Assembly (NCBI RefSeq): GCF_019972135.1
Contig: NZ_BPFI01000002.1
Location: forward strand, 124,001 to 188,000
DNA length: 64,000 bases
Direction of reading: 5' to 3'
Origin: Sulfurovum sp. TSL1
Lineage (GTDB): Bacteria > Campylobacterota > Campylobacteria > Campylobacterales > Sulfurovaceae
Below are positions 30,215 through 63,135 of this stretch, one piece after another. Made by a program: the position numbers and the translations under genes. Every line of letters begins with the position of its first letter. Positions within the stretch are counted from its first letter, which is position 1. The notes under the pieces are model-generated. The model was not told the origin of the DNA. It searched no databases and saw only the letters and a list, made by a program, of their open reading frames with translations.

Positions 30215-30901
30215 TTAAAACCAAAACCTCACACCCACCATTAAACTGGTTTCATCTATAGGATTGTATTCGCGGGTATTTCCAAATGTCTTTTCCCAGG
30301 TGACACCGATATAGGGTGCAAATTCACGTATAAATTCATAGCGTAACCGTAATCCTGCTTCTATGTTGGAGAGTCCGGAACCAATGTGCAAATCCGGATC
30401 GTCTTTTGTGTAGAGATCTGCTTCGAGTGATGGTGTGAGTATCAGTTTCTGTGTCAGCAGTGCTTCATACTCTGCATCTAAACGTAAACCGATATTCCCA
30501 TCTCCATTGACAAGCAGAGCTGCTCTTGTCTCAAAGTAGTAAGGTGCCAAACCTGAAATCGCGATCTCTCCCCATGTTTTGGATGCATCATCATTTTTGT
30601 CATAGGCCAACCCTATCTGTACATCCCAAAACGGTGCTACAGCCCTGGAATAGACCAGTTCATTTTGGCTTGACTCCAAGCCGTCAGAAGTCGCTTCCCC
30701 TTCACTGTAGATGTAGAGTTTATTGATATCGTAGCCTATCCAAAAGCTGCCTTCCCACACTCTGGTATTTTCATCATTGTCCAGTACTTCAAATCGATCC
30801 ATAAGGAACATGGTGACCAATGGGTCATCCTCCATACTTGCCTGTGCAGTTTGCCCCAGGGCGATCATAGCCATCAAATTTAATACTATTTTTTTCATCA
30901 C
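30215..30901 (-). CDS. copB: Outer-membrane copper resistance protein CopB
   Basis: A 228-residue outer-membrane barrel protein with signal peptide (KKIVLNLMAMIALGQTAQA). WEGSFWIGYDINKLYIYSEGEAT, FWDVQIGLAYDKN, IAISGLAPYYFETRAAL and the terminal MVGVRFWF are hallmarks of CopB/PcoB. It lacks the long Met/His-rich N-terminal domain of plasmid PcoB, so it is the short form. It follows the CopA-type multicopper oxidase with a 7-base gap; the two work together in periplasmic copper sequestration and oxidation. Confidence 0.92.
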   Translation of the reverse strand: MMKKIVLNLMAMIALGQTAQASMEDDPLVTMFLMDRFEVLDNDENTRVWEGSFWIGYDINKLYIYSEGEATSDGLESSQNELVYSRAVAPFWDVQIGLAYDKNDDASKTWGEIAISGLAPYYFETRAALLVNGDGNIGLRLDAEYEALLTQKLILTPSLEADLYTKDDPDLHIGSGLSNIEAGLRLRYEFIREFAPYIGVTWEKTFGNTREYNPIDETSLMVGVRFWF

Positions 30902-30908
30902 TGTTCCT

Positions 30909-32639
30909 TTATACCACTACCACTTTTCTAAACATACCGGCCATATGATAAAGCATATGACAGTGGTATGCCCATGCATCTCTGGCATCAACGGTCACCC
31001 TGTAACTTATCTTGGCACCCGGCTGTACAACGACTGTATGTTTTCTTACCAAATGGTTATCGTCACCCGTTTCCAGGTCACTCCACATGCCATGCAGATG
31101 CATGGGGTGGTTCATCATGGTATCGTTAATAAATGTAATGCGTATACGTTCACCATAGTAGAATGCCAAAGGTTTGGAGTCGGCATACTTAATACCATTG
31201 ATTGACCACATATAACGTTCCATATTGCCTGTGAGGTGTAAAATGATCTCTCTGTCGGGTTTTTTGGCTTTACGCGTGGAGTATCTGTTCTTCAGATCTG
31301 CATAGGTCAGTACTTTTCGGCCATTATTTCTCAGCCCTACTCCGGGATCGTCCAGTCTGTATTTGGGTGCTACAGCCTTCATGGTCGTTTGTAATCCGCG
31401 TTCCATAGGCAGTTGAGTGATAGGATACCTCTGTGACCCCATCTTTGTATATTTGTCTTTTTCCAAGTCTTTTTTAGAAGACATCATACCTGAACCGCAT
31501 TTCATGCCTTCTCCGTGATCCATTTGGCCCATATCCATTCCCATATCGGTGTGGGTGAGAACAGGTCGGGGATCCATGGCAGGTGCCTTTGCCAACATAG
31601 AAGTTTTCGGTGTGAGTGACCCCATGGCATACCCTGAACGGTCGATACTCTGTGCAAATAGGGCATAGGCTTTATGCTCATCAGGCTCTACTATGACATC
31701 ATAGGTTTCTGCTACCCCGATACGAAACTCATCGATGCTTACAGGTTTGACATGATTGCCATCTGCAGCTACTACGGTCATTTTGAGTCCGGGTATACGT
31801 ACATCAAAGAATGTCATGGCCGATGCATTGACAAAACGCAGACGTATCTTTTCCCCTTTGTTAAAAAGTGCTTTAAATTGGGTTGCAGGATTTTTTCCAT
31901 TCATCAAAAACGTATAGGTATATCCTGTGACATCAGAGAGGTCCCGGTCATTCATACGCATCTCATTCCACATTTTTCGGTCAGAAAACGCATTTGAAAA
32001 GCCTTTTTCTTTCACTTCATCCAGAAAAGTACCTACCGTCCTTCGAGAAAAGTTATAGTAGTGGCTCATTTGTTTGAGTTTTTTATAGATCGTTTCCGGT
32101 TTTTCATCACTCCAGTCAGAAAGCAGTACAACATAGTCTTTGTCATAGGCAAACGGCTCTCTTTTCCGTGGCTTGATGACGATGGTGCCATACATCCCTG
32201 TTTGCTCTTGAAATTCTGAGTGACTGTGATACCAGTAGGTTCCGTGCTGCTGTACTTTAAAGGTATAGGTAAACGTCTCTCCCGGAGCAATACCGTCATA
32301 ACTGATCTCGGGAACACCATCCATACCGGCAGGCAAAATGATGCCGTGCCAGTGAATAGAAGAGCTTTTTTTTAAATGATTGGTCACATGCAGTGTGACA
32401 GTTTCACCTTCTTTCCAAACCAGGGTGGGACCCGGTATCTGTCCATTGATGGTAGTGGCTACAGCGCTTGCGCCTGTGAAGTTCACCGGGGTATAGTCGA
32501 TGTCCAGAAAAAATTCATTTCCCGTAAGGATATTACGGTTATTTATATTTTTTCGTGTAGGTCTAGCGTCGATGCTTGTAGTTGTCATTCCCATAATGGA
32601 AGCAACCGCTATTCCTTTGACAAATGTTCTTCTTTGCAT
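30909..32639 (-). CDS. copA: Multicopper oxidase CopA, periplasmic
   Basis: A 576-residue multicopper oxidase with a Tat signal (MQRRTFVKGIAVAS). The four copper-ligand blocks are present: HWHG at 96-99, YWYHSHSEFQEQ, HPMHLHG in the third domain, and HCHMLYH at 559-565 with the type 1 Cys 560. A Met-rich insert (MGMDMGQMDHGEGMKCGSGMM) probably binds Cu(I). It oxidises Cu(I) to less toxic Cu(II) in the periplasm. It lies between the SHOCT gene and copB, and all three are read from operator C. Confidence 0.95.
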   Translation of the reverse strand: MQRRTFVKGIAVASIMGMTTTSIDARPTRKNINNRNILTGNEFFLDIDYTPVNFTGASAVATTINGQIPGPTLVWKEGETVTLHVTNHLKKSSSIHWHGIILPAGMDGVPEISYDGIAPGETFTYTFKVQQHGTYWYHSHSEFQEQTGMYGTIVIKPRKREPFAYDKDYVVLLSDWSDEKPETIYKKLKQMSHYYNFSRRTVGTFLDEVKEKGFSNAFSDRKMWNEMRMNDRDLSDVTGYTYTFLMNGKNPATQFKALFNKGEKIRLRFVNASAMTFFDVRIPGLKMTVVAADGNHVKPVSIDEFRIGVAETYDVIVEPDEHKAYALFAQSIDRSGYAMGSLTPKTSMLAKAPAMDPRPVLTHTDMGMDMGQMDHGEGMKCGSGMMSSKKDLEKDKYTKMGSQRYPITQLPMERGLQTTMKAVAPKYRLDDPGVGLRNNGRKVLTYADLKNRYSTRKAKKPDREIILHLTGNMERYMWSINGIKYADSKPLAFYYGERIRITFINDTMMNHPMHLHGMWSDLETGDDNHLVRKHTVVVQPGAKISYRVTVDARDAWAYHCHMLYHMAGMFRKVVVV

Positions 32640-33386: not shown

Positions 33387-33411
33387 GCTACTCTCTGTTT
33401 AATGATTGAAC

Positions 33412-33783
33412 TTAATTGTTCATCATACCTTTGCCTTTATTCATCATCATGTTTTGATCTTGCTTAGTCTTCATACCTTGACCTTGATTCATGCCCTGAC
33501 CCTGACTCATCATGCCTTTACTCTGGTCGTTCATCATACCTTTGCCTTGGTTGCCCGTCATTCCTTGATTATTCTTTTTGTTTTTACTTTTTTTCATATA
33601 TTTTTGGCGCTCTTGAGGTGTCATGGATTGCATCCGTTTTTGCATCTCTTTTCTGAAATCTTCTTGTTGTTCCATGGGTACATTGCCTCGCATACTCATC
33701 ATCTTTTCAGTATCCATATGCGTAAAGTCTGTTGCGTAAAGCGAAGCCATCATCGCCGCTATTGTTAATATATATTTCATCAT
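33412..33783 (-). CDS. Secreted Met-rich repeat protein
   Basis: A 123-residue protein with a signal peptide (MMKYILTIAAMMASLYA), a helical middle with MRGNVPMEQQEDFRKEMQKRMQSM, and a C-terminal run of short repeats of the form xGMMxxQ (GKGMMNDQ, SKGMMSQ, GQGMNQ). Met clusters of this kind bind Cu(I) or Ag(I) in the oxidising periplasm. It resembles the protein at 51938-52408, and both are followed by a permease gene, so this is a second, decayed copy of that two-gene unit. Start ATG 33783 has AAAAGGA before it. A TTGACA lies upstream, but no tandem-box operator. Confidence 0.75.
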   Translation of the reverse strand: MMKYILTIAAMMASLYATDFTHMDTEKMMSMRGNVPMEQQEDFRKEMQKRMQSMTPQERQKYMKKSKNKKNNQGMTGNQGKGMMNDQSKGMMSQGQGMNQGQGMKTKQDQNMMMNKGKGMMNN

Positions 33784-34038
33784 TTTTTCCTTTTCATGTA
33801 AATTCATATCTTTATTAAACAAGTTTAAATCCTGTCAACATATTTCCGTTTGTCATAGTCTTTCAAACTCCTTTCTTAGTTATTTTATTTTTTTAGCAAT
33901 GTTATTGATTTTTCTATCCAAACGAGCATGGTATATTCTTCTTTAGCAGTATTTCTAATGTCTTCTCTAATAAGAAAATTTTGTTCCATGATGTATCATT
34001 TATCTTCACATTGTATGATTCAAGTGTGTATTCTTTGT

Positions 34039-36555: not shown

Positions 36556-38538
36556 TCACCGTTTAATTTTCAGCAATCGAGCATTAATAGCAACGATTAC
36601 CGTACTTGCGGCCATCAATACCGCACCTATTGCAGGAGAGAGAAGTACACCCCATGAGTACAACACGCCTGCTGCTAGAGGAATGGCGACAGCGTTGTAT
36701 CCCGTGGCCCAGATCAAGTTTTGGATCATTTTTTGATATGTGGCGCGGGAAAGCTGCACGATAGCTACAACATCCAGTGGATTGCTCCGTACCAGTATCA
36801 CATCGGCGGTTTCTACCGCCACATCAGAACCTGCACCGATAGCGATTCCTACATCAGCCTGAGCCAGCGCAGGAGCGTCGTTTACACCGTCACCGGTCAT
36901 GGCTACCAGTACCCCTCGGGCCTGGACCTCTTTCACTTTTTCGGCCTTGTCCTGTGGCAGGACTTCGGCGAAATATTCATCTAGCCCTATTTGCTCCGAG
37001 ACCCACTGAGCCGTCGCCTTGTTATCGCCTGTGAGCATCATGCAGCGTATGTTCAGTGCCTTTAGCGCATTGATCGCCTGTTTCGCTTCGGGCCGTATGA
37101 TATCGGCAAGGGCAATCGCGCCTTTCAACTGTTCGTCGACTAGGACGAAGACGACTGTTTTCCCCTGAGCTTGCAGAGGCTCAATATGCTGCTCATCAAG
37201 TTCGATATTCTGTTCACGCAGGTAGCCGGGACTAACCACCTTGATCTCCTTACCCTCGACCCTGCCTTGCGCACCTTTTCCAGGGATACTTTTAAAGTTT
37301 TCGACCGGCAGTTTCTTTTCAGCGGAAGCGGCAATAGCCTTGGCAATAGGATGTTCGGAATTCGCATCCACAGCAGCGGCGTATCGGTGCAATGTCTCTT
37401 CATCAATGTCCTGTGCAAGCATCAGTGTATCTGTCACGCCAAAGCGCCCCTCTGTCAGCGTACCGGTCTTGTCAAAAATGACAGCTTGCAGTTTCCGCGC
37501 GCTTTCGAAAGCAGTACGATTACGGATCAAGAGGCCATTGCCTGCGGCCAATGCCGTAGATACGGCCACCACCAGCGGCACAGCCAGACCGAGGGCATGC
37601 GGGCAGCTAATGACCATGACAGTGACGCTACGTTCGATAGCAAAGGCAAATTCCTTGCCCATAAAACCCAGCCAGATGAAAAAGGTGACAGCGCCACCAC
37701 CCAGAGCAATGATTGTGAGCCACACCGCCGCAGTGTTGGCCAGATTCTGGGTCTTTGACTTGCTTTGCTGAGCTTGCTTGACCAGGTCGATGACCTGTGA
37801 CAGAAACGAGTCCTTTCCTGTGCCTTTGACCTCGATGGTCAACGAGCCTTCACCGTTGATTGCGCCGCCAATGACCTCGGCACCACTTATTTTAGTGACA
37901 GGAGTAGACTCGCCGGTAAGCATCGCCTCATTGACCGAGCTTTCGCCCTTCACGATGATACCGTCGGCGGGGATCTTCTCACCGGGTTTGATCAGCACCC
38001 TATCGCCCACTGCTAGTTCGCCAAGAGGAACGTCCTTTACGCTGCCGTCGGGCATTAGTTTATGGGCATCGGAAGGCATGAGTTTGGCTAGGGCCTCCAG
38101 GGCCTTTGAGGCACCCATCACCGACTTCATCTCGATCCAGTGGCCCAGCAGCATAATGTCAACAAGTGTCGCCAGTTCCCAGAAAAACATTTTGCCGGTC
38201 AGTCCAAACACGACTGCGCTGCTGTAGAGGTAGGCAGTGGTAATGGCGACGGCAACCAGTGTCATCATGCCGGGCTGCAAGGATTTGAGCTCATTGAACA
38301 AACCTTTAAGGAATGGCCAGCCGCCATACCAAAAGACTGCCGATGATAGCCCAAATAGAAGATAGAGGTCGCCGGAGAAAGAGATGGTTTCGCGCAGACC
38401 GACCAGATTTTGCAGCAGTGGCGAAAGAACGAGAATCGGTAGGGTCAGGACCAGCGAGATCCAGAAACGCTTGCGGAAATCCGCCGCCATGTGGCTATGA
38501 TGGTCGTGGTGCTCTGAATGGTCAGTATTGTGTTTCAT
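36556..38538 (-). CDS. copB: Copper/silver P-type ATPase, CPH type
   Basis: A P1B ATPase of 660 residues. A His-rich N-terminus (HSEHHDHHSHM) replaces the usual CxxC domain. The membrane metal site is SCPHALGLAVP, the CPH motif of the CopB class. Phosphorylation site DKTGTLTEG, TGES loop TGESTPVTK, TGDNKATA and the hinge TGDGVNDAPALAQADVG are all intact. It exports copper or silver ions from the cytoplasm. ATG 38538 has GAGGAG upstream and is preferred to 38580. The gene is strikingly GC-rich relative to the flanks. It is read leftward from the left half of the divergent operator D. Confidence 0.93.
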   Translation of the reverse strand: MKHNTDHSEHHDHHSHMAADFRKRFWISLVLTLPILVLSPLLQNLVGLRETISFSGDLYLLFGLSSAVFWYGGWPFLKGLFNELKSLQPGMMTLVAVAITTAYLYSSAVVFGLTGKMFFWELATLVDIMLLGHWIEMKSVMGASKALEALAKLMPSDAHKLMPDGSVKDVPLGELAVGDRVLIKPGEKIPADGIIVKGESSVNEAMLTGESTPVTKISGAEVIGGAINGEGSLTIEVKGTGKDSFLSQVIDLVKQAQQSKSKTQNLANTAAVWLTIIALGGGAVTFFIWLGFMGKEFAFAIERSVTVMVISCPHALGLAVPLVVAVSTALAAGNGLLIRNRTAFESARKLQAVIFDKTGTLTEGRFGVTDTLMLAQDIDEETLHRYAAAVDANSEHPIAKAIAASAEKKLPVENFKSIPGKGAQGRVEGKEIKVVSPGYLREQNIELDEQHIEPLQAQGKTVVFVLVDEQLKGAIALADIIRPEAKQAINALKALNIRCMMLTGDNKATAQWVSEQIGLDEYFAEVLPQDKAEKVKEVQARGVLVAMTGDGVNDAPALAQADVGIAIGAGSDVAVETADVILVRSNPLDVVAIVQLSRATYQKMIQNLIWATGYNAVAIPLAAGVLYSWGVLLSPAIGAVLMAASTVIVAINARLLKIKR

Positions 38539-38733
38539 GATGGGTAATCTCCTCTCTTCGTTATGCTGCACTTGGTGCATATTCCCGGATGATCCTGATG
38601 TGTCTCGGGATGTAAGGGACAGACGTAAAAGTCCTGGCCGATATCACACTTGTCATAATCTTGTTAAATCAAAGTCTCACACAAATTATGAGATTGTTTT
38701 CATTAACCCTTTCTATTACACTAGTTTAATATC

Positions 38734-43017: not shown

Positions 43018-46000
43018 TTACTCCTTGTTAAAAAATAGAATATATAATGAAGGTAAGACCAGCAAGGTCAAGATTGTTGAAGAGATAATTCCTCCTGTGA
43101 CTACCACTGAGAGCGGATACTGTATTTCCGAGCCTACACCTGTAGCAAAAAGGAGCGGGAGAATACCAAAGAGCGTGGTGAAGGCTGTCATGAGTACAGG
43201 TCTTAGCCTTAGTAAGGTAGCACTTTTTACCATATCTATCATTTTCACTTCTGGGAACTTTTTACGTAATTCATCTATGAATGACACAAGTACTATCCCG
43301 TTGAGTATTGCTATAGCAAAGATGGCAATAAACCCTACAATGGCAGAGACACTCAAATATTCGCCTGAGATGAGTAGTCCAACAATACCTCCCATAAGCC
43401 CTAATGGCACGCCCAGTAAAATTAGAAACGCTTTTTTAAGAGAGTTGAATGCCGTATAGAGCAACAATAGAATAAGTAAAATCGTGATAGGTATAATCAT
43501 TGCAAGCGTTTGTGTAGCTTCTTGCATATTCTTGAAATCGCCTGCCCACTTAATGTAATAGCCATCAGGCAGGACAACTTGTTTACTTATCTTTATGCTT
43601 GCCTCTTCAACAAACGTAGCAATGTCACGATCTTCAACTTCCAGTGAAAGAACCATATATCGACTCAAGTCCTCACGCTTAATAAAGGCAGGCCCCTGTG
43701 CTACACTGATGTCACACACTTCCTCCAGGGAAACTATTTTTCCGGTACCTGAACGAAGGATCAGTTTTTTTATTGTTTCTATATCTTGTTTGGCATTTTT
43801 TAATTTTGCCACGATACCAAAGCGTTTCACTCCTTCTATCTTTTGAGTAACAGTTTCTTCCCCAATTCCATAACGAATGACTTGCATTACATCTTCCACA
43901 TTGAGGCCATATCGCGAAAGTGCTAGGTAGTTTGGCTTGATATTGATCTGTGCTTGTCCTAATTGTGTTTCAACCTCGGCATGATCAAGCCCTTCTATGC
44001 CCTGCAGGACTTTAGATATTTGCGCAGCAACATCAGACATAACCTTTTGGTCTTCTCCGTAGATTTTGACTGCAAGTTCTGCGCTTACGCCCTCAAGTAG
44101 CTCTTCTATACGCATAGCAATAGGTTGAGTAGAGATAAATTGTAAATAGTTAAACTCTTCTTTGAGTTTTTTTGTCATCTCTTTGTCAAGAGCTGGAATA
44201 TCTTCAAACTCTGGATCAAGGGTCAAGAGAACCTCCATGTAGTTAGCTTGTGCCGTTTCACCTTTTTCACTTCTTCCGATCATGCTTAGTACAGAGAGTA
44301 CTTCTTCAGGATAGGTTTTAAGTATAAAGTTTTCGATAGCTTGTGCATTTTCTACATTTTGAGTAAGTGAGGTTCCAGGGATAGCGATAACCCTGTACAT
44401 AATGGTCTCTTCATTGAGCTCCGGCATAAACTCCCGTCCTTGCTGACTGAGTAGTCCTGCTAAGACAAAGAATATAAAGAAAGTAATGGCCACCAGCTTT
44501 TTTGCATGGCGCAAAGAAAACTCCAGCATAGGTGTATAGAATGCCTTAATGGCTGCCATAAGAGGACTGTTCGAGTGCTTCCCTTGTTTGAGCATCATAT
44601 ATGAGAGTACCGGAACCAGTAGAAGAGCCACCGCAAGCGAGCCAAGCATCACAAAGACAATGTCCAATGCCATAGGGGTATAAAGTTTTCCTGCAAGTCC
44701 TTCAAGGCTCAACAGCGGAATAAAGACAGCTGCAATAATAAGGAGGGCAAAAAGTACTGGCTTTGCCACATCTGCAGTAGCTTCTGCGATCACTTCTGCA
44801 CGTGAGGCTTTGGGGTTATCATGCAATAACCTGAAACTGTTTTCGACAACCACAATGGTTCCATCAACTATCATCCCTATAGCTATAGCTAGTCCGCTAA
44901 GGCTCATAAGGTTTGCAGATATGCCATATTCTTTCATCATTAAAAATGCTATAAGCAAAGAGATAGGTAAAGAGATGATGACGATAAATGCAGAACGTAG
45001 TTCGAACAAAAAGAGGAATAACACGATCGCAACAAGCACTGAGCCTGTTAGAAGTGCGGAAGTCATTGTGCTGACTGCCTTATGCGTTATTTCTGTTCTA
45101 TCGTAAATCACTTGGAGCTTTACACCTTTGGGGAGTGCTGATTCAACCAGTAGTATTTTGTCCTTGATAAGCTCAACAACCTTGGCTGCATTGGTACCTG
45201 AACGCTGAAGCACCATTCCAAAGACCCTTTCTTTCCCATCAACACTTACTGCTCCAAAACGGGGAGCCTTTCCTTCTTGTACTGTAGCAACATCTTTTAT
45301 CGTCACCACTTTTGCATCTTTTGTGCGTATGACAGTATTTCGAATATCATCCATTTTTTCATAGAGTCCTGCACCACGTATAAGGTACTGCTCTCTATTG
45401 AACTCTAGGTATTGTCCACCTACGGATTGATTACTCTTTTCTAGCGCTTCTATCACTTCATTATAGGTGACATCAACAGCTTGAAGACGCTTAGGGTCCA
45501 CAAGAACTTCATATTGTTTCTCAAAGCCTCCCCAAGAGATGACCTCTTCTACACCATCCACAGATTTGAGTAAAGGAGTGACTGTATATTCATGCAGTTG
45601 ACGGAGTTGGCTAGGTGTATATTTATTGGCCTTATCTTCAAGGGCATACCATAATACCTGCCCTAAGCCTGTTGTATTCGGACCCATGGTCGGAACACCC
45701 CATCCTTGAGGTATATCTACCGTATTGAGTCTTTCAGTAACGAGTTGACGCAATAGGTAAGTATCATAGCCGTCTTCAAAGAAAATAGAAACATACGAAA
45801 GTCCAAAAATTGAGTTCGAGAGTATCATCTTAACCCCAGGCAAACCTGACATGGCTGCCTCTATAGGGTAGGTGATGAGTTTCTCTATGTCTTCCGCAGA
45901 GTTACCAGCACTTTCTGTATAGATGACCACCTGCTTAGGAGTAATGTCTGGAAATGCGTCTATAGGTATATTTTGATACGCCTTATAACCAAATCCTGAG

Positions 46001-46068
46001 ATGACTATAAACAGCGCGAGCATGAGAAGTTTATACTGTATAAGTATTTCAAAAAAACGTTTCACCAT
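43018..46068 (-). CDS. czcA: Heavy-metal RND efflux pump, CzcA family
   Basis: A 1016-residue RND pump. Helix 4 reads GLAIAIGMIVDGTIVVVENSFRLL. It keeps one Asp of the proton path but lacks the first Asp of the DFGxxxD pattern known from Co/Zn/Cd CzcA, so its substrate may not be the classic set. N-terminal NIPIDAFPDITPKQVVIYTES and the helix-10 region FIAIFAIAILNGIVLVSFI are standard for the heavy-metal group. It is distinct from the cusA gene at 21735. It works with the adaptor and channel encoded just upstream. No tandem-box operator precedes this operon. Confidence 0.9.
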   Translation of the reverse strand: MVKRFFEILIQYKLLMLALFIVISGFGYKAYQNIPIDAFPDITPKQVVIYTESAGNSAEDIEKLITYPIEAAMSGLPGVKMILSNSIFGLSYVSIFFEDGYDTYLLRQLVTERLNTVDIPQGWGVPTMGPNTTGLGQVLWYALEDKANKYTPSQLRQLHEYTVTPLLKSVDGVEEVISWGGFEKQYEVLVDPKRLQAVDVTYNEVIEALEKSNQSVGGQYLEFNREQYLIRGAGLYEKMDDIRNTVIRTKDAKVVTIKDVATVQEGKAPRFGAVSVDGKERVFGMVLQRSGTNAAKVVELIKDKILLVESALPKGVKLQVIYDRTEITHKAVSTMTSALLTGSVLVAIVLFLFLFELRSAFIVIISLPISLLIAFLMMKEYGISANLMSLSGLAIAIGMIVDGTIVVVENSFRLLHDNPKASRAEVIAEATADVAKPVLFALLIIAAVFIPLLSLEGLAGKLYTPMALDIVFVMLGSLAVALLLVPVLSYMMLKQGKHSNSPLMAAIKAFYTPMLEFSLRHAKKLVAITFFIFFVLAGLLSQQGREFMPELNEETIMYRVIAIPGTSLTQNVENAQAIENFILKTYPEEVLSVLSMIGRSEKGETAQANYMEVLLTLDPEFEDIPALDKEMTKKLKEEFNYLQFISTQPIAMRIEELLEGVSAELAVKIYGEDQKVMSDVAAQISKVLQGIEGLDHAEVETQLGQAQINIKPNYLALSRYGLNVEDVMQVIRYGIGEETVTQKIEGVKRFGIVAKLKNAKQDIETIKKLILRSGTGKIVSLEEVCDISVAQGPAFIKREDLSRYMVLSLEVEDRDIATFVEEASIKISKQVVLPDGYYIKWAGDFKNMQEATQTLAMIIPITILLILLLLYTAFNSLKKAFLILLGVPLGLMGGIVGLLISGEYLSVSAIVGFIAIFAIAILNGIVLVSFIDELRKKFPEVKMIDMVKSATLLRLRPVLMTAFTTLFGILPLLFATGVGSEIQYPLSVVVTGGIISSTILTLLVLPSLYILFFNKE

Positions 46069-46074
46069 AGACTC

Positions 46075-47214
46075 CTAGTGACCGTCTTCGCCAAGCGAAG
46101 ACTTCAACATCATAGATTTCACAAAATAAACACCTTCGCTTACATACTCTTCCTCTGCACTAATGCCTTCAATAGCCACATATTCACCAGCATACGCGAT
46201 GATATTGACCACTTTTGCTATGTATGGAGCTTCTTCATCCTCGTCGTCGTGCTCATCGTGCTCATTCGCTTCTTTTTCATGGTTAAGACCTGATTTTTCC
46301 TCATGGTGATCCGCTTCTTCGTGTTTCGCCTCTACAAATACTACCCATTCCCCTTGAAAAAGTGTCAAAGCTGATTTTTTAACCATGACAGCATCATGAA
46401 AAGGTGCAAGTGATATATCCATCTCCGCGAAGGATCCAAAGAGGAGGTTTGAAGGACTTTTCTCTATTTGAAAAAGTACTTTTGCGCGTTGCGTCTCCTC
46501 ATCAATGTTTGGCAATAATTGTAAAAAATATGAAGGATATGTTTTGTTTGCAACTTTTAACCATCCTTTGGTCTCTTTTGATATCTGCATCGCATCATCA
46601 ACAGCCAGGTATGCAACAGCATAATAATCGCTTTGATTCACCAATGTCATCAAAGGTGTTTGTGCATCTACATTACTGTGCAGTGGAGCTAAAATTTCCC
46701 CAACAACACCATCTGCATGTGCATAAAGTATAAGCTGATCAGTTGCACTTTTAAGCTCTTCCGGTTCAATGCCTAAAGACTTCAGTTGTGAAGATAAAGT
46801 GTTTTGCTTAGAACGTATCTCTTCTAGGGCTATGATAACGCTACTTAAATCATTTTGTGAAGCAAGACCTTTTTTATAAAGCTTCATAGTGTTATTTTTC
46901 TGTGCTTCTGCAGCTTTGGATTGCTCCAATAATGCAAGATGCTCGGCAGTCATTCTAGAGAGTTCTATAGACTCTATAAGTATTGTTTTGTCGCCTTCTT
47001 TTACCTGTTGTCCAGGTGTGACAAAATAAGCTTCTAGATGCCCAGACAACCTGGAAACAATCTCTTGTTTTTGGCCAGAGAGTTGTGTGATCTGTGCATT
47101 GGTCTGGATAACTTTTCCTAAAGGTTTTAGTGAAGCATGTTCAATTTTGATTTCATTTGCCAAGCTCTGCATCGAAAAGAGTAGCGGCAGTAGTAATAAT
47201 ATGTATTTAGTCAT
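46075..47214 (-). CDS. czcB: RND periplasmic adaptor with His-rich loop, CzcB family
   Basis: A 379-residue adaptor with signal peptide (YILLLLPLLFSMQSLA), the barrel-sandwich region (IVSRLSGHLEAYFVTPGQQVKEGD) and coiled-coil hairpin. Near residue 310 there is an extended acidic His-rich segment (HEEADHHEEKS ... HDEHDDEDEE) that should bind divalent cations such as zinc or cobalt, arguing for a divalent metal substrate for this pump. It overlaps the channel gene by eight bases. Confidence 0.88.
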   Translation of the reverse strand: MTKYILLLLPLLFSMQSLANEIKIEHASLKPLGKVIQTNAQITQLSGQKQEIVSRLSGHLEAYFVTPGQQVKEGDKTILIESIELSRMTAEHLALLEQSKAAEAQKNNTMKLYKKGLASQNDLSSVIIALEEIRSKQNTLSSQLKSLGIEPEELKSATDQLILYAHADGVVGEILAPLHSNVDAQTPLMTLVNQSDYYAVAYLAVDDAMQISKETKGWLKVANKTYPSYFLQLLPNIDEETQRAKVLFQIEKSPSNLLFGSFAEMDISLAPFHDAVMVKKSALTLFQGEWVVFVEAKHEEADHHEEKSGLNHEKEANEHDEHDDEDEEAPYIAKVVNIIAYAGEYVAIEGISAEEEYVSEGVYFVKSMMLKSSLGEDGH

Positions 47215-48382
47215 TGTATTGTCCTTGTATAAAACGTAATTCTATTTTTTTATTGTTGATCATTGCTTGTGTTTGCAGTAGTGACTTTTGCGTCTGTATG
47301 AGTTTGTTTTTTGCATTCATCATCACAAAGATAGACCCTTGAGCTATCTTGTAGCCTTCCAAAAGTAATGTACTAAGTGCCTCCTGCTCTGTCTTAAGTG
47401 TTTTAAGTGAGCGATACTGCTGTGAAAGTTCTTTTATGGAATCTTTGAGCATTTGTTTTTTCAAACTAAGATCTATTTTAAGTTGTGCACTGTCAAGTTC
47501 TAGTTGTTTCATTTTTAATCTTGCCAGGGCTTTTTCTTCTTCTTTCTTGTGCTGTACGGTTAAGGGGATAGAGATACCAAGTCTTATGATAGACTGGTCA
47601 GGCTCCTGCTCTATACCTGTGTTTAACACATAGCTATTAAAGCTGCTTTCGTTCATGCGCATTTGACTTGCTAACATCTTTTCTTTTGCAGCAAGAATTT
47701 TCTCTTGAGGGCTGACTTTTGATGCGCTTTTTGCTTGAGACGAGACAGAATAGACAAACTTTTTATCCAAAGACACCTTATCACTAAAACCAGCGATAGC
47801 TAAGAGCTCATAGTGCAGTGAGTTCATCTGCTGTTTTGTTGTGTATATCTGTGTTTTTAGCGCCAAGGTATCTGTTTTTGCCTGCAGGTATGCTGCTTTG
47901 TTTTCCGAGCCATTCTTGTATCGTTCTTCTACAATGCCAGTCACTTCGCTTGAAAGTGCATACTCTTGCTTGAGTAATGAAAGCAGTTTGCTTTGATAGA
48001 CATATTCTGTATAAAGTCCTTCAAGTGCTTTCATGTATCCAGCTTTCCCTTCAAGCACATAGGCTTGCTGGAGGAGATTAGAAGCATTGGCTTTATCTTG
48101 GAGCCCCCCTAAATAATTCCCAGTTCTGATAGTCTGAGATGCGCTTATCGTATAGCCATATTCAGAATCGGTAAAATCAGGGTTGTATCTTGCTGCCTCT
48201 AGGCCCAATGTTGGGTTTTGTGTTCTTAAAAGTATGTTATTTTCTTGCCTGTTTGCCTCAAGTGAGAGTTGTTGACTTTTGAGTACTTTTGAGTTTTCTT
48301 CTATATGTTTTTTAAGCTTTGCGTAGCTCATCCCAAAGAGAGAGAGCGACAAAGTTAAAAAAATCATGATGATTTTTTTCAT
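47207..48382 (-). CDS. czcC: TolC-type outer-membrane channel, CzcC family
   Basis: A 391-residue outer-membrane efflux protein: signal peptide (MKKIIMIFLTLSLSLFGMSYA), two coiled-coil repeats (KLKKHIEENSKVLKSQQLSLEANRQ and later EKILAAKEKMLASQMRMNESS) and strand segments (SIIRLGISIPLTV-like). It completes the tripartite pump with the two genes after it. The 63-base gap upstream separates it from the small secreted protein gene that probably shares its transcript. Confidence 0.86.
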   Translation of the reverse strand: MKKIIMIFLTLSLSLFGMSYAKLKKHIEENSKVLKSQQLSLEANRQENNILLRTQNPTLGLEAARYNPDFTDSEYGYTISASQTIRTGNYLGGLQDKANASNLLQQAYVLEGKAGYMKALEGLYTEYVYQSKLLSLLKQEYALSSEVTGIVEERYKNGSENKAAYLQAKTDTLALKTQIYTTKQQMNSLHYELLAIAGFSDKVSLDKKFVYSVSSQAKSASKVSPQEKILAAKEKMLASQMRMNESSFNSYVLNTGIEQEPDQSIIRLGISIPLTVQHKKEEEKALARLKMKQLELDSAQLKIDLSLKKQMLKDSIKELSQQYRSLKTLKTEQEALSTLLLEGYKIAQGSIFVMMNAKNKLIQTQKSLLQTQAMINNKKIELRFIQGQYND

Positions 48383-48917: not shown

Positions 48918-49457
48918 CTAGTATGAAGAGTTCTTTCCCATTCCACATTTTCCAGCAGCACACCTCATGCTGTTTTGGTCCTGCATCATTCCTTTGCCTT
49001 CCATGCCCATGCCACCTTTCCATGGCATACATTTGTTATCGTCCCATTTTTCATCGAAGTTTTTATAGAGCCACACCGCTACCGCTACGCGTTCTTCCAT
49101 GCTCATTGAAGCACCTATCGGTGGCATCAGTCCAAATCTTCTGATGGCCATTGGCATACAGACTGCTTTATCTCGACTCGGGTTTTTGATATAGTCCATG
49201 ACAAATGCAGTAAACGCAGCTTCGTCATTGCCTACAGCGTATTTTACTTTTGCGCTTACCATGGCCATTGGTGGTGCTTTCATGCTCCTCATCATTTCCT
49301 GCATGGTCTCCATGCGTTCAACTTTATCCATATTCATTGGAGCTTCTAGCATATGGCATTTGGCACATTTGGCATTGTAAACATTCTCGCCGGTGACGTT
49401 GGCACTCAGACTCACTGCTGCAAAAAGCAGACCTACGATAATTTTATTCATTTTCAT
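48918..49457 (-). CDS. Secreted mono-haem cytochrome c with MRCAAGKC tail
   Basis: A 179-residue protein with signal peptide and a single haem motif CAKCH at residues 31-35. A Met-rich segment (MNMDKVERMETMQEMMRSMKAPPMAM) follows, and the distal part (PIGASMSMEERVAVAVWLYKNFDEKW) is a cytochrome c C-terminal helix. The last 30 residues are GMGMEGKGMMQDQNSMRCAAGKCGMGK, combining the Met repeats and the MxCxxGKC motif of other island proteins. Electron transfer linked to copper oxidation is plausible; it is not proven by sequence. Confidence 0.82.
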   Translation of the reverse strand: MKMNKIIVGLLFAAVSLSANVTGENVYNAKCAKCHMLEAPMNMDKVERMETMQEMMRSMKAPPMAMVSAKVKYAVGNDEAAFTAFVMDYIKNPSRDKAVCMPMAIRRFGLMPPIGASMSMEERVAVAVWLYKNFDEKWDDNKCMPWKGGMGMEGKGMMQDQNSMRCAAGKCGMGKNSSY

Positions 49458-49988: not shown

Positions 49989-51119
49989 TTATGATGCGCA
50001 ACCTCCATCTGAACAAGATGCCAAACTCCTTTTGCCAAAGTAAGGCTTGATTAGAAAATAACCTACAAATCCCCACAATACCAATGAACTAAGTATGGCT
50101 ATTGCCCCGGCATCCTCCTCAATATGCACAAGTGATTTTGGATCAATAGAGTTGCTGTCAAAAACGTAGTCCAGTCCTAGTCCAAAAAGCATACTTCCTA
50201 TAATAATGCTGCCAAGGTAAATATAAAGAGATCGAGCCCCGAGCATCTTTTTGACTACACTGATTGTCACTGTGTTGGTTGCAGGTCCCGCACTAAGGAA
50301 TACAAAAGCGGCTCCTGCACTGACGCCAGACAACATCAATGCAGCAGCGATAGGCAGAGAAGCTGTTGCACAAATATACATCGGTACGGCAATAGCGATA
50401 GCGACAAGATAAGAGAGCCAAGCATGATCCATTAGCATTTCACTAAGGTTCTCAGGGATGGCTACCGCGATGGCTGCACCAATAATGAGACCCCAGAAGA
50501 GAGGTTTGGCAATGTCACCGAGCAGAGTGACAAAAGCATAGCGCAGTGCCGAACTGGTTGAAAATTTTTTCTTCTCTTCTGTGTCACAACAGGATGTGCC
50601 AGAACTACAGGGGACTTCTTTCTCTTTTTCGGAAAAGCCGGAGGCCATAGAAAAACCTGTTGTTGGTGCTGCATTAAAAACTGGCTTGGGTTTCTCTTGC
50701 TCATCTTTGTCAAAAATGTTGGTGAGTATTCCTGCTGCCATAGCAATGATCATTGATGTGATGACCCGATAGAGCGTAAAGATCCACCCGAAGACTCCAT
50801 AGGTTGCAAGAATAGAATCCACTCCTGTAATTGGTGTTGAGATAAGAAAAGAGAGCGTTGAGCCTTTGCTTGCGCCACTCTTTTTAATGCTGGTTGCCAA
50901 AGGTATTACTCCACAAGAACAGACAGGCAAGGGCACACCAAAGATTGTCGCTTTGACAACCGATGAAATATTTTCTTTACCTAGGTGCTTTGTAACTAAC
51001 GTATTGGGGACTAATTCGTGCAGTATGCCCGCAAATATAAGCCCAAATAGAATATAGGGAGCCATAGCATTGCTGAGTTCAAATAGTGCTATGAAAAAAG
51101 GGGTGACGTATTCCATCAT
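49989..51119 (-). CDS. SO_0444/ArsP-type metal efflux permease
   Basis: A 376-residue membrane protein of the DUF318/UPF0718 group. The Cys motif GVPLPVCSCGVIPLA lies in an early membrane segment, the second half repeats ATASLPIAAALMLSG, and a cytoplasmic loop holds CSSGTSCC. The C-terminus ends ASCSDGGCAS. Members carry Cu/Zn or organoarsenic out of the cell. The divergent ArsR gene with a palindromic operator between them argues for metal- or metalloid-controlled expression. The precise ion is unknown. Confidence 0.85.
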   Translation of the reverse strand: MMEYVTPFFIALFELSNAMAPYILFGLIFAGILHELVPNTLVTKHLGKENISSVVKATIFGVPLPVCSCGVIPLATSIKKSGASKGSTLSFLISTPITGVDSILATYGVFGWIFTLYRVITSMIIAMAAGILTNIFDKDEQEKPKPVFNAAPTTGFSMASGFSEKEKEVPCSSGTSCCDTEEKKKFSTSSALRYAFVTLLGDIAKPLFWGLIIGAAIAVAIPENLSEMLMDHAWLSYLVAIAIAVPMYICATASLPIAAALMLSGVSAGAAFVFLSAGPATNTVTISVVKKMLGARSLYIYLGSIIIGSMLFGLGLDYVFDSNSIDPKSLVHIEEDAGAIAILSSLVLWGFVGYFLIKPYFGKRSLASCSDGGCAS

Positions 51120-51224: not shown

Positions 51225-51533
51225 ATGAAAACATTAGTTCAAATAGCAAAAATATTCAGTGACGCCAACCGGCTCGATATTTTCGCTCTTATTATTCGTA
51301 ATGGAGACCTGTGTGTCTGCGAAATATGTGATACACTAAACCTTTCTCAACCACTAGTATCTCGTCATCTAAAGAATATGCGAGAGGCGGGGATACTCGA
51401 GAGCAAGCAGGAAGGCCGGTGGATGGTGTATTCATTGACACCCCAACCAAATACATTTTTGCTTTGCTGGATCGAAGAGGTTAGAAAACATATGGACTCC
51501 TTACCCAAACTAATTGGCTGCTCAAAACGCTAA
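51225..51533 (+). CDS. ArsR-family metal-responsive repressor
   Basis: A 102-residue winged-helix repressor. The metal site is GDLCVCEICDTL (Cys 30, 32, 35), the alpha-3 type site of ArsR, followed by the recognition helix SQPLVSRHLKNMREAGIL. It should release DNA on binding arsenite, antimonite or a soft metal, and so induce the divergent permease. AGAAAG precedes ATG 51225. It differs from the regulator at 18352, which lacks this Cys motif. Confidence 0.9.
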   Translation: MKTLVQIAKIFSDANRLDIFALIIRNGDLCVCEICDTLNLSQPLVSRHLKNMREAGILESKQEGRWMVYSLTPQPNTFLLCWIEEVRKHMDSLPKLIGCSKR

Positions 51534-51755
51534 GCATCTTATTTGTGAACAAATGAAAATGAATACATTTTGATAAAATTTACTCCCTTTACTTCATCTT
51601 ATTTTTGGCTAGTAAAAAATGTGAGTCTGAAAACCTATTTGGCCACGCTGTATTGAGGCCCAAATATGGCTTATCTGTAGATGCCTGCAAAGAAGCAAAA
51701 AAAGATATTTGGAGTGTGACTTAATGCCAAATACGAATTGCTTTAGATAACATTC

Positions 51756-51828
51756 AAAACCTTATAGCATATATAACATTATGAGGTTTTCTTACCCCTT
51801 ATATTCTATGTTAGATTATAAGGTTTTA
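51756..51828. repeat. Compound palindromic repeat related to the IS ends
   Basis: The segment reads AAAACCTTATAG, then ATATATAACATTATGAGGTTTT, then CTTATATTCTATGTTAGATT, then ATAAGGTTTTA. Its middle resembles the IS right end (ATATATAACTTTATGAGG) and its last part repeats 18229-18256 and 42613-42636. The 51534-51937 gap holds nothing else except operator F. Confidence 0.6.
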
Positions 51829-51876
51829 GAATTATAGATATGATTTTTATCATAAACCAGAGAAGAATACTTTTAT

Positions 51877-51898
51877 TGCACACTCTTTGCACATTAAC
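51877..51898 (+). promoter_or_regulatory. Operator F: tandem boxes, Met-rich protein/permease promoter
   Basis: TTGCACACTCT is followed by TTGCACATTAA, with cores 11 bases apart and TATACT exactly 8 bases after the second core. The Met-rich gene starts about 40 bases downstream. Confidence 0.75.
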
Positions 51899-51937
51899 AT
51901 TTTATACTTTGAGATCAATTAATATAAAGGATTATCG

Positions 51938-52408
51938 ATGAAAAATATTAACGTTACACTGATAGCACTCTTGATCATAGGATTTACAAGTTTCTCATAT
52001 GGTGAAATGGGAAAATGCAGTGGTATGCAGAATTCAAATATGAAAAACAAGTCTGGAATGATGCAGAACCAAAAAGGTATGATGGGTAATCAAGGCATGA
52101 TGCAAAACTCTAATTCTCAGCAACAGGTCGACAAAGTCAAAGAGTGTGTTAATGCTGCTACTACGCTTCAAGAAATTAAAAATTGTAAAATCGGAATGAT
52201 GCAAACTAATCAAGGAATGATGGGTAACAAAGGTATGATGGATGGTCAAGGTATGATGTGCAACAAAAGTATGCATTGTTGTTGCTGTTGTTGTCGAGGT
52301 ATGATGCAAGGTAATCAAGGAATGATGGGCAACAAAGGTATGATGGGTGGTCAAGGAATGATGGGCAAGAAAGGTATGAAACAGGGTCAAGGTATGATGA
52401 ACAATTAA
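51938..52408 (+). CDS. Secreted Met-rich protein with six consecutive cysteines
   Basis: A 156-residue protein with signal peptide (TLIALLIIGFTSFSYG) followed by two blocks of xGMMxxQ-type repeats separated by a helical insert (DKVKECVNAATTLQEIKNC). Inside the second block lies MHCCCCCCRGMM, six Cys in a row at about residues 114-119, encoded by TGT/TGC repeats at 52277-52294. A soft-metal scavenger for Cu(I) or Ag(I) in the periplasm fits the composition. It is first behind operator F and 22 bases before the permease. The repeats also make the gene prone to slippage. Confidence 0.8.
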   Translation: MKNINVTLIALLIIGFTSFSYGEMGKCSGMQNSNMKNKSGMMQNQKGMMGNQGMMQNSNSQQQVDKVKECVNAATTLQEIKNCKIGMMQTNQGMMGNKGMMDGQGMMCNKSMHCCCCCCRGMMQGNQGMMGNKGMMGGQGMMGKKGMKQGQGMMNN

Positions 52409-52430
52409 GTTCAATAATTAAAGAGAGAGT

Positions 52431-53759
52431 ATGATGAAAGATCATTCCCAACACGATAGATCAACAAAATATAAAGAAGGCAGTATGACGCTTGTTGGTG
52501 CTATATCAATGGGTACAGGTGTGATGATTGGTGCCGGAATCCTGGCACTGACAGGGCAAATTGCTGAGCTTGCAGGTTCACTGTTTCCTCTTGTATTTCT
52601 TGTGGCTGCTGTAGTCACTGCATTCAGTGCTTATTCCTATGTAAAAATGTCTAATGCATATCCCTCTGCCGGAGGTATCGCGATGTTCCTGGAAAAGGCT
52701 TATGGAAAAGGAGTGATGACAGCAGTAGGTGCACTTTTAATGTACTTTTCCATGGTTATCAACGAAAGTCTTGTCGCACGTACTTTTGGTACATATACTG
52801 TTCAGCTATTCGATGTTGATCATGGTAGTTGGATCGTGCCTGCATTGGGTATAGGAGTACTACTTTTTGCCTTTTTGCTTAACATTTCGGGGAATCGCAT
52901 GATTGGCCTGTTTTCTTTACTTATGGCTCTTATAAAAATTGGCGGTATCATTATATTTTCACTCGGTGGATTATGGGTTGCCGGTTTTTCATTTGAAAAC
53001 ACTTCTGTAAATATGGCAGATACATCTGCTACAGGCTTCATTGCCGCAATGGCCTTGGCTATCTTGGCGTATAAGGGTTTTACCACTATTACCAATAGCG
53101 GTTCAGAAATTGTGAACCCACATAAGAATGTTGGACGTGCCATTATCATTTCCATTGTGATATGCGTAGTGATTTATTTTTTAGTCGCTATAGCTGTGGC
53201 AGCAAATCTAACTTTGCCGGAAATCATCAATGCAAAAGATTATGCACTAGCACAGGCAGCACGACCTGCATTTGGTAATTATGGTTTATGGTTTACTGTA
53301 GCAATAGCAATTATAGCAACCGTATCAGGAGTGATTGCAAGTGTGTATGCAGTTTCACGTATGCTTGCTATGTTGACTGAAATGAAGCTTGTACCACATA
53401 GCCATTTTGGTATGCCCGGAGACATCCAAAAGCATACATTGGTATATACCATTGTCATTGCTATTTGTTTGACGATATTTTTTGACTTGAGTCGGATTGC
53501 ATCACTGGGGGCTATTTTTTATATTATTATGGATATTGCTGTTCACTGGGGTGTTTTCAAGCATCTTCGTAAAGAGATTCATGCTAACGCATTTATTCTA
53601 ATATCTGCGATCATATTTGATGTTATAGTGCTTGGTGCCTTTCTTATAGTGAAAGCATCAACAGACATAATGATAATTTATGCTGCATTGATAGGGTTTT
53701 TGTTTATATTTATAGGCGAGAGCATTTTTTTAAGAAAGTATAGAACTGAAGAAGTCTAA
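52431..53759 (+). CDS. APC-superfamily permease, intact copy
   Basis: A 442-residue transporter with 11-12 membrane helices. The helix 1 signature GAISMGTGVMIGAGILALTGQ and the segment NSGSEIVNPHKNVGRAI are typical of amino-acid/polyamine/organocation permeases. The N-terminus is His-rich (MMKDHSQHDRS). Substrate is unknown; pairing with a Met-rich secreted protein under a copper-type operator suggests import of an amine or amino acid needed in the stress, or a role in metal movement. Three broken relatives occur at 32925, 34280 and 55131. The last codons overlap the facing gene by three to four bases. Confidence 0.85.
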   Translation: MMKDHSQHDRSTKYKEGSMTLVGAISMGTGVMIGAGILALTGQIAELAGSLFPLVFLVAAVVTAFSAYSYVKMSNAYPSAGGIAMFLEKAYGKGVMTAVGALLMYFSMVINESLVARTFGTYTVQLFDVDHGSWIVPALGIGVLLFAFLLNISGNRMIGLFSLLMALIKIGGIIIFSLGGLWVAGFSFENTSVNMADTSATGFIAAMALAILAYKGFTTITNSGSEIVNPHKNVGRAIIISIVICVVIYFLVAIAVAANLTLPEIINAKDYALAQAARPAFGNYGLWFTVAIAIIATVSGVIASVYAVSRMLAMLTEMKLVPHSHFGMPGDIQKHTLVYTIVIAICLTIFFDLSRIASLGAIFYIIMDIAVHWGVFKHLRKEIHANAFILISAIIFDVIVLGAFLIVKASTDIMIIYAALIGFLFIFIGESIFLRKYRTEEV

Positions 53760-61012: not shown

Positions 61013-63135
61013 TTTTTGTCTCCCATATCTTCTAACAGTTTTTTCATTTCATCTAAATTGACGGTTCCAGAGTCAGTATCATCGTGTTCAATTGTATTTA
61101 TTTCATTTCTTCTTAAGCAGGCTTGTTCAATCGGTGATGCCATTTGAATATTAGAAAGCTGTATTAATGAACCATCTGGTACAGTTGGATCATCCAAAAT
61201 ATCACAAGTACTTTTCAGAATTTCCAGAAACCTAGTGTGAGATTCTACCCATCTGTTTGCTCCAAAATAAGATTCTTTTTGCGCATTTTTAGCAGTTATC
61301 AGAAAGCCTTCAGTATCCTTCTTCATCTCTTTGATTCTTTCAGTTCTTACCTTGTCGCCTTTCATGCATAAATGTTCAATACATCCCATACAATTTCCGT
61401 GATGTTCGCACGGAGTCATGGTAAAGTCGTGTATACATACACCTACCTCTGTTACATGGGCTGTTCTCACTTTTAGTCTAGCGTATTCATCACGTGAAAT
61501 AACGACCTTCTTTTTAATATCCTCAATATTGGAGAGAGGGCCTTTCATCGCATTTTCATCTCCTATTGCATCACGGACCATTTCTAACATCTCATCTGCA
61601 CTAACATGGTCATATACCTGGTTTTGATGAATGTCGATCCGTCCAGACCATTTAGCAATGTCTAGCTGACTCAGCCCACCTTTTTGTGCGAGCGTATTTA
61701 AGTAGTGCCTGAATTGATGTGATGTCATCTTTATTGAGATGCCATTACTCTCTTTATAGTCAAAACGATCAAATAGTGAAGAGAGGTTCCCTCTGTTTTT
61801 TAAAGCATCAGTAACTATATCCATGCGGACAGTATTTATAGTAGGGATAAGAGTACCTTTTTTACTATGATACTCATTAGTCATTTGAAGAACAAGTGCC
61901 TCTGAAAACTTCAAACCTATTTCTTCATTCAAGTAGGGAAATCTTTCTGGCAGGAGAGTAAGTACTACTTTTTCAAGATCAGAAAAGTGAACGACGAGTT
62001 TATTTCCATTTCTTGAGTAGGGTACGGATTTCTGGTTTATCCATGATGCTGTAATCTGTTTACGACGTGTAAGATTGTTATCTGTAATATCTTTACCAAA
62101 TATAATATATGAAACTTCTGTGGTGCTTAGGACAGTACCCCTTAAGTATTCGAGTTCTTCAGGGAGATACAGCTTGCCTGGATTATTCTCATACCACTTA
62201 GCAACCTCTCTGGCTTGTTTGGTAACTGTCTTAATTCTATTGATTGCTTCTTGTGCAACATGAACCATTGAAGGAATAATCCATTTGATCATAGGGGCTG
62301 CACCTTTTGAGGGAAACCATCTTAGGCCATATTGTTCAGTACCATCCTTATCTTTTTGCGTTACTTCACAATTATATGGCAATAGAAATACTTCGTTAAT
62401 ACGGTTTGGTGCACAGATCAATAGAGAAATTAGGGAGGTTGTCAGTTTTTCATAAGGTGTGATGGCCTTGTTGAATATTTCTGGTATTGCTTCTAAGCCA
62501 GCTTCTGAGGGCATCTTTTTGTTTCTCTTGTCATCGGCTTCTTTCCCGACTCGAGAACCACTCTCTGGACGTTTGATGGGGTTTTTCCAATCAATTTGTA
62601 TTTTTGTCAAGCGCTTCATAGAGAGAAATTTTCCAATATTTTCTAATGTTCCGCCAATACGATATGCTCTCCCTTTAGAATAAGAGGTTTTTGTGATATT
62701 TGCAGCCTTGTCCAAGACATAGTTGTCAATAGCATTTGTATTTGCGGTTCCTGTGATTTGAATAAGCGCCTCTTCTATAATCCTTAAAGGCTCTAATAGG
62801 TTTCCAGGAGATTTGAAAGAATTGAGCCCAAACTTATATCTAAAATACGACTTGGCAAAACTTAAGAAGGGCTCTTGCATTGGACTGATATTTTCATGGG
62901 TCGCTTTAGTTCCACTTTTATTTGCAGAAGCAAACTTATGCGTTGTAAAAACTACAGAAATACGTTTTGTTTGAGCTTTCTGTTGGACATAAGGGGTAAT
63001 ATCCCACACATTTTTATCAAAGGAAAGATCTGTTCCAAAAACAGTAATATCATCTCTACACACAGCAATGAACTTATCTAGATTTTCTTGTGAACTCGAT
63101 GTCTCGATTGGTTCAAATTGAATGAATTCATTCAT
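61009..63135 (-). CDS. Large tyrosine recombinase, TnpB/GmtZ-like
   Basis: A 708-residue recombinase. The first catalytic Arg is probably in LLICAPNRINEVFLLP. The second block HQFRHYLNTLAQKGG, the WSGRIDIHQNQVYDH segment and its Tyr complete the site. A C-terminal Cys/His cluster follows (CIHDFTMTPCEHHGNCMGC ... HLCMKG), probably zinc-binding. Long N-terminal and C-terminal extensions set it apart from Xer or phage integrases and match the second recombinase of Tn554 (TnpB, about 630 residues) or of Gamma-Mobile-Trio elements. Four-base overlaps on both sides show that the three proteins are made together. Confidence 0.82.
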   Translation of the reverse strand: MNEFIQFEPIETSSSQENLDKFIAVCRDDITVFGTDLSFDKNVWDITPYVQQKAQTKRISVVFTTHKFASANKSGTKATHENISPMQEPFLSFAKSYFRYKFGLNSFKSPGNLLEPLRIIEEALIQITGTANTNAIDNYVLDKAANITKTSYSKGRAYRIGGTLENIGKFLSMKRLTKIQIDWKNPIKRPESGSRVGKEADDKRNKKMPSEAGLEAIPEIFNKAITPYEKLTTSLISLLICAPNRINEVFLLPYNCEVTQKDKDGTEQYGLRWFPSKGAAPMIKWIIPSMVHVAQEAINRIKTVTKQAREVAKWYENNPGKLYLPEELEYLRGTVLSTTEVSYIIFGKDITDNNLTRRKQITASWINQKSVPYSRNGNKLVVHFSDLEKVVLTLLPERFPYLNEEIGLKFSEALVLQMTNEYHSKKGTLIPTINTVRMDIVTDALKNRGNLSSLFDRFDYKESNGISIKMTSHQFRHYLNTLAQKGGLSQLDIAKWSGRIDIHQNQVYDHVSADEMLEMVRDAIGDENAMKGPLSNIEDIKKKVVISRDEYARLKVRTAHVTEVGVCIHDFTMTPCEHHGNCMGCIEHLCMKGDKVRTERIKEMKKDTEGFLITAKNAQKESYFGANRWVESHTRFLEILKSTCDILDDPTVPDGSLIQLSNIQMASPIEQACLRRNEINTIEHDDTDSGTVNLDEMKKLLEDMGDKK

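What the first reader, a model, noticed from the sequence alone, without database searches (positions are those of the whole stretch)
51938..52408. Met-rich repeat protein with a six-cysteine run coded by a TGT/TGC tract
MHCCCCCCRG inside xGMMxxQ repeats is extreme for a secreted protein. The coding tract TGTTGTTGCTGTTGTTGT can change length by slippage, which would tune metal ligands.
Basis: partly seen in the sequence, partly recalled or inferred. Interest (0 to 1): 0.55.

Follow-up and report, generated by a model that had tools for sequence, protein, structure and literature searches.

The report
Copper-island protein with polycysteine run
A small, probably exported bacterial protein, very rich in methionine and carrying six cysteines in a row, sits among copper-resistance genes and probably soaks up copper; in the few relatives available the cysteine run looks stable rather than a fast-changing switch.

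Summary
In detail: window 51938-52408 (+) encodes 156 aa with a signal-peptide-like N-terminus (read by eye), 30 Met, and MHCCCCCCRG coded by TGTTGTTGCTGTTGTTGT. The genus is Sulfurovum. A pattern scan of 78 genus genomes found six such loci in four genomes, five distinct alleles, with 6, 7, 8, 8 or 6+Phe+1 Cys; in an even sample of 397 Campylobacterota genomes only the window's own matched. Two different N-termini (one DUF1104) share the MHC(6-8) core in a Met-rich repeat tail. One DUF1104-type pair has dN 0.07, dS 0.79 and keeps all eight cysteines. The window also holds copper genes: CopA oxidase, CopB, a Cu P-type ATPase, CusA/CzcA-family pumps, an SO_0444 Cu/Zn exporter. Best reading: a disordered periplasmic Cu(I)/soft-metal sponge with a thiolate site inside a thioether repeat. 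Metal binding is untested. Slippage is not supported: TGC interrupts the tract, eight codons persist at dS 0.79, and the one near-identical pair that differs does so by substitution; but few comparisons exist. New variant of a known kind.

The parts
51938..52408 (+). Met-rich polycysteine protein, 156 aa (type A), probably exported
   Evidence: ORF list; composition
51938..52003 (+). signal-peptide-like N-terminus, about 22 aa (FSYG|EMGK; paralog FSYA|EMGK); read by eye
   Evidence: sequence; no predictor was run
52109..52213 (+). residues 58-92, predicted two-helix hairpin with KECV...KNCK cysteines; absent from the G003:C1 copy
   Evidence: AlphaFold2 model, 10-residue block means 57-69 there, 116 of 156 residues below 50; alignment
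52277..52294 (+). six-cysteine tract TGT TGT TGC TGT TGT TGT, preceded by ATG CAT (Met-His)
52210..52399 (+). 36-bp period Met/Gly/Gln/Asn repeat around the Cys run (63% matches)
   Evidence: Tandem Repeats Finder
51887..51909 (+). upstream element TTGCACATTAACATTTTATACTT, also upstream of the G003:C1 copy; role not established
52431..53759 (+). APC-type permease directly downstream; also next to the G000:C1 and G003:C1 copies
51225..51533 (+). ArsR/SmtB metalloregulator
   Evidence: NF033788, 83 bits, cut-off 55
49989..51119 (-). SO_0444 family Cu/Zn efflux transporter
   Evidence: NF033936, 388 bits, cut-off 300
43018..48382 (-). CusA/CzcA-family RND pump with adaptor and outer-membrane-factor-like gene
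   Evidence: TIGR00914, 904 bits, cut-off 701; adaptor TIGR01730 below its cut-off; 47207-48382 had no NCBIfam match, assigned by eye
36556..38580 (-). copper P-type ATPase
   Evidence: TIGR01511, 626 bits, cut-off 397
33412..33783 (-). second Met-rich gene (DUF1104 type, no cysteine) beside a shortened permease ORF
30215..32639 (-). CopB and CopA-type multicopper oxidase
   Evidence: PF05275, 247 bits; TIGR01480, 805 bits, cut-off 479

Best explanation
The protein is exported and largely disordered, and binds Cu(I) (or another soft metal such as Ag(I)) in the periplasm. Its many Met thioethers would hold Cu(I) loosely and in number, and the contiguous Cys run with its preceding Met-His would form one tight thiolate cluster site. 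It would thus act as a buffer beside the multicopper oxidase and the Cus-type efflux pumps of the same island. Shown: gene, signal-peptide-like N-terminus, Met/Cys composition, copper gene context, purifying selection in one DUF1104-type pair, recurrence of the MHC(6-8) core on two different N-termini. Inferred: periplasmic location, disorder, metal identity, cluster formation, exchange with partners.
For: Copper genes in the same window. The DUF1104-type copies in G000:C1 and G027 lie near a multicopper oxidase, and in G027 near a YHS/HMBD P-type ATPase; G116 is 99.88% identical to G027 over 18.9 kb there. In three other genomes a permease of the downstream kind (89, 79 and 72% identical) sits near copper-type genes: an oxidase in G055, an oxidase-like and a CopB-like protein in G037, a CusA-like protein in G012; these were named by eye. 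dN/dS about 0.09 with the eight-Cys run intact in one pair. Six loci with the MHC core, one with a Phe inside the run. Met-rich exported proteins bind metal elsewhere: SilE (PMC5008109, passages), H. pylori CrdA (PMC9182242, passages).
Against: No metal-binding or expression data. Vicinal cysteines in an oxidising periplasm may form disulfides instead. One allele (G027) has Cys replaced by Phe. Met-rich relatives without any run (window 33.4 kb, G055) occupy a like neighbourhood, so the run is not essential to the module. Beside G003:C1 no copper gene was confirmed by a family search; only a P-type-ATPase-like fragment was seen by eye. The dN/dS rests on one short, repetitive pair.
Confidence: 0.6

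Rival explanations
1. The tract is a contingency-like repeat whose length changes by slippage to tune the number of metal ligands.
For: Run length 6, 7 and 8 among copies, 6 against 7 within one N-terminal type; a period-3 row at the tract.
Against: Mixed TGT/TGC codons, longest pure TGT run three units; eight codons kept at dS 0.79; the near-identical pair G027/G116 differs by substitution, not length.
Confidence: 0.07
2. The polycysteine codons are a cysteine-responsive attenuator: ribosomes slow at the run when cysteine is scarce and change expression of the amino-acid permease just downstream.
For: The permease follows within about 25 nt in the window, G000:C1 and G003:C1 copies. Polycysteine short ORFs are reported to act so in mycobacteria (Canestrari 2020; only its title was seen, in the reference list of PMC9094748; the paper is not held). 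The fold of the G003:C1 stretch is about 1.3 sd below its shuffles.
Against: G027 and G116 copies have no permease next door; run-less Met-rich genes precede the permease in G055 and at window 33 kb, where the permease is shortened; the run lies 37-54 codons before the stop; folds of the window and G000:C1 stretches are at shuffle level, 50 single-base shuffles each; no Rfam match in 51500-52600.
Confidence: 0.06
3. The Cys run is a thiol/redox buffer or binds another metal (Ag, Zn, Cd, Hg) rather than copper.
For: Thiols bind all soft metals (general knowledge); the island also has an SO_0444 Cu/Zn exporter and an ArsR regulator of unknown metal.
Against: The best-identified neighbours, CopA, CopB and a TIGR01511 ATPase, are copper genes; Met thioethers favour Cu(I)/Ag(I) (general knowledge).
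Confidence: 0.2
4. Low-complexity drift: repeat expansion gave a neutral Cys run without function.
For: Repeat tails vary in length and order between copies; Cys to Phe in G027.
Against: dN 0.07 against dS 0.79, all eight Cys kept between G000:C1 and G116; the same MHC core on two N-terminal types.
Confidence: 0.07

Closest known systems
SilE / PcoE periplasmic metal sponge
   Same: small, periplasmic, disordered when metal-free, Met-containing repeat motifs, in an operon with an RND effluxer and a P-type ATPase (PMC5008109 passages)
   Different: SilE has ten His and ten Met and binds through both; this protein has one His, 30 Met and a Cys run; no family hit above cut-off
Copper storage protein Csp1
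   Same: exported, many Cys for Cu(I) (PMC7558416 passages)
   Different: Csp1 is a rigid four-helix bundle with Cys inside and a Tat signal; here a repeat protein with one contiguous run and no twin arginine
Bacterial metallothioneins (SmtA, MymT)
   Same: Cys-rich, metal-thiolate clusters (PMC7558416 passages); this protein would work likewise if the reading is right
   Different: no metallothionein family hit; known ones cytosolic with spaced Cys (recalled)
H. pylori CrdA
   Same: Met-rich secreted copper determinant of a campylobacterotal bacterium, grouped with CrdB/CzcB/CzcA (PMC9182242 passages)
   Different: modelled on CopC/PcoC and has no Cys and no His
Trichinella Ts-PCHTP poly-cysteine metalloprotein
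   Same: exported, called poly-cysteine, proposed metal storage or transport (PMC2954182 passages)
   Different: animal protein; the passages seen give scattered Cys (motif CxCCC) in two domains and a His tail, not one Cys run in a Met-rich repeat
DUF1104 (PF06518)
   Same: N-terminal domain of the G000:C1, G027 and G116 polycysteine copies
   Different: absent from the window protein; of 23 DUF1104 ORFs recovered in the genus 3 carry the Cys run

Membership tests
SilE/PcoE | sequence relation to SilE/PcoE | tested here: inconclusive
   no Pfam or NCBIfam match above cut-off and best PDB match at E 0.48, not SilE; no direct comparison with SilE was run
SilE/PcoE | His/Met metal motifs | tested here: not met
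   one His in 156 aa; Met yes
SilE/PcoE | disordered without metal, folds on binding | tested here: inconclusive
   model mean pLDDT 45.5 from a six-row alignment; folding not testable
Csp copper storage | four-helix bundle with Cys inside | tested here: inconclusive
   low-confidence model shows a signal helix and a two-helix hairpin, run in coil; no Pfam hit above cut-off
Csp copper storage | Tat signal (Csp1) | tested here: not met
   MKNINVTLIALLIIGF has no twin arginine, read by eye
Metallothionein | family profile match | tested here: not met
Metallothionein | metal-thiolate cluster | not testable with these tools
   needs purified protein
DUF1104 (PF06518) | profile match above 25 bits | tested here: not met
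   window protein none; its G000:C1 and G116 relatives score 33 and 34 bits
Polycysteine attenuator | run upstream of the regulated gene in each copy, with an RNA switch | tested here: not met
   G027/G116 lack the permease; two of three folds at shuffle level, one about 1.3 sd below
Periplasmic copper-handling proteins (functional class) | linked to copper resistance genes | tested here: met

The most novel reading that the evidence does not exclude
A contiguous Met-His-Cys(6-8) run is a compact Cu(I)-thiolate cluster site that works in the periplasm, carried by two unrelated exported Met-rich scaffolds and, for one of them, spread between Sulfurovum species on a mobile copper island. I found no such design for bacterial export proteins in the listings of the searches made here (open-access papers only).
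Probability: 0.3. Interest if true: 0.6.

Novelty: new variant of a known kind. Interest (0 to 1): 0.42.

Why it matters
Free thiols are thought to be kept few in the oxidising periplasm, where Met and His dominate copper sites (general knowledge). A kept run of six to eight Cys there would show a new way in which sulfur-oxidising Campylobacterota could buffer Cu(I), and would give a very short, testable peptide for soft-metal capture.

Tried and rejected
Slippage tuning: not supported, on codon interruption and length stability. Attenuator: disfavoured on synteny and folding. Antisense coding: reverse frames of 126 and 82 aa exist over the gene; I take them as shadows of repeat DNA and did not test them. 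A shared upstream motif over six upstream regions: no better than five shuffles; only within-subtype likeness. Rfam: nothing. Protein searches of genome contigs, viral contigs and plasmids: no relative; low complexity limits these. Of the five genomes, one is the window's own and the G002 match (L006) lies in frames that are not Met-rich. Pattern hits L012, L013, L019, L020 and L021 dropped as frames without the Met-rich repeat. Window protein against the 21352-21738 protein: not significant. The AlphaFold2 model is too poor for a fold search. In one search one of 24 DUF1104 matches (L034) was not recovered and the L050 row re-picked the neighbouring L031 gene.

Full report
What is there. The ORF at 51938-52408 (+) encodes 156 residues: a signal-peptide-like N-terminus (read by eye), Met/Gly/Gln/Asn repeats with a 36-bp period, a short segment predicted at modest confidence as a two-helix hairpin, and Met-His-Cys6-Arg-Gly. 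It has 30 Met, 10 Cys and 1 His. One of 200,000 shuffles of the mature part gave a run of six Cys. No Pfam or NCBIfam family reached its cut-off, the best PDB match had E 0.48, and no plasmid record matched.

Relatives. A protein search of 100 genomes, the window's own included, gave matches in five; one of these (G002) is not Met-rich. The pattern Met-His-Cys4 in 78 genus genomes gave eight places in six genomes. Two (L012, L013) lie in short frames that are not Met-rich; the other six are true relatives in four genomes: the window copy (6 Cys); G003:C3, identical (6); G003:C1 (7); G000:C1 (8); G116 (8); and G027 (six Cys, Phe, Cys). G027 matches the contig titled Sulfurovum sp. AR in length and sequence. 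In 397 Campylobacterota genomes only the window's own matched; G003, G027 and G116 are not in that sample's list. A scan of 84,980 species genomes for [G/S/R]-M-H-C5 found two stretches, Sulfurovum sp. AR and an unrelated 26-codon frame; records near the window's own genome may be left out of it, and runs without this Met-His lead would be missed.

Two scaffolds, one core. The window and G003:C1 copies share one N-terminus; the G000:C1, G027 and G116 copies start with a DUF1104 domain. All have GM-rich tails and the MHC core. DUF1104 occurs in 17 of 78 genus genomes with 24 matches; of 23 recovered ORFs three carry the Cys run (for one further match no ORF was recovered and one row re-picked a neighbour). 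The window itself has a DUF1104 Met-rich gene with no Cys at 33.4 kb.

Selection and tract stability. G000:C1 against G116: dN 0.071, dS 0.789 over 147 codons, with one silent TGT/TGC change inside the run and all eight Cys kept. Window against G003:C1: dN 0.143, dS 0.913 over 105 codons of an uncertain repeat alignment, dN 0.029 and dS 0.449 over the first 43 aligned codons, with 6 against 7 Cys. G027 against G116, 99.88% identical over 18.9 kb, differ in the run by TGT to TTT, not by length. Window against G003:C3 is identical, but they share an almost identical block (about 22.1-60 kb; 28 of the 37 one-kb bins from 23 to 60 kb have no mismatch) while 1-8535 is 87% and 61607-63977 is 77% identical. 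That pair therefore only shows recent sharing.

Context. Within the window: SO_0444 Cu/Zn exporter and ArsR regulator, CusA/CzcA-family pumps at 43018-46068 and 21735-24866, copper ATPase, CopA oxidase and CopB. The APC permease directly downstream is found at E 1e-100 or better in five of 78 genus genomes, next to a Met-rich gene in three of these (G000, G003, G055) and not in G012 or G037; at E 1e-150 it is in 3 of 150 genomes of the family, all of this genus.

Mechanism. Most likely a periplasmic soft-metal sponge. Shown: gene, signal-like N-terminus, composition, selection in one pair, copper context. Inferred: metal, location, disorder, cluster, partners. SilE and CrdA are the working analogues; membership in the SilE, metallothionein or Csp families was not met or inconclusive on the features tested.

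Against mine: no biochemistry, a Cys-to-Phe allele, run-free Met-rich genes in a like setting, no confirmed copper gene beside G003:C1, and possible disulfide formation in the periplasm.

Noticed in passing
window 22102-60000: Metal-resistance island nearly identical between two Sulfurovum genomes (G000, G003) while 1-8535 is 87% and 61607-63977 is 77% identical: recent horizontal sharing is the likely reason.
   Followed up: partly
window 63132-63941: Site-specific integrase ORF matching positions 216-484 of 484 of NF041502 (below its cut-off), near the island's right edge.
   Followed up: no
window 32925-33822: Second Met-rich (DUF1104) gene beside a shortened ORF of the same APC permease kind, then a SHOCT-like ORF (by eye) and the CopA oxidase gene.
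   Followed up: partly
window 33817-33840 (-): Imperfect inverted repeat TGTTGACAGGATTTAAACTTGTTT at the start region of the DUF1104 Met-rich gene; similar stretches upstream in G000:C1 and G055. Possible regulator site.
   Followed up: partly
window 15378-15641 and 16192-16455: Two near-identical small ORFs that look like ribosomal protein S18 genes about 0.8 kb apart (named by eye).
   Followed up: no
window 21349-21738 (-): Small lipoprotein-like ORF with KCGAGKCG and KCETGKC motifs directly after a CusA-family gene.
   Followed up: no
window 48918-49457 (-): Cytochrome-c-like protein (match below cut-off) with a Met-rich tail and RCAAGKCGMGK near its end.
   Followed up: no
L028:7899-8222: G015 small Met/Lys-rich protein with a KCAAGKCG tail, next to a heavy-metal-associated (HMA) domain protein.
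   Followed up: partly
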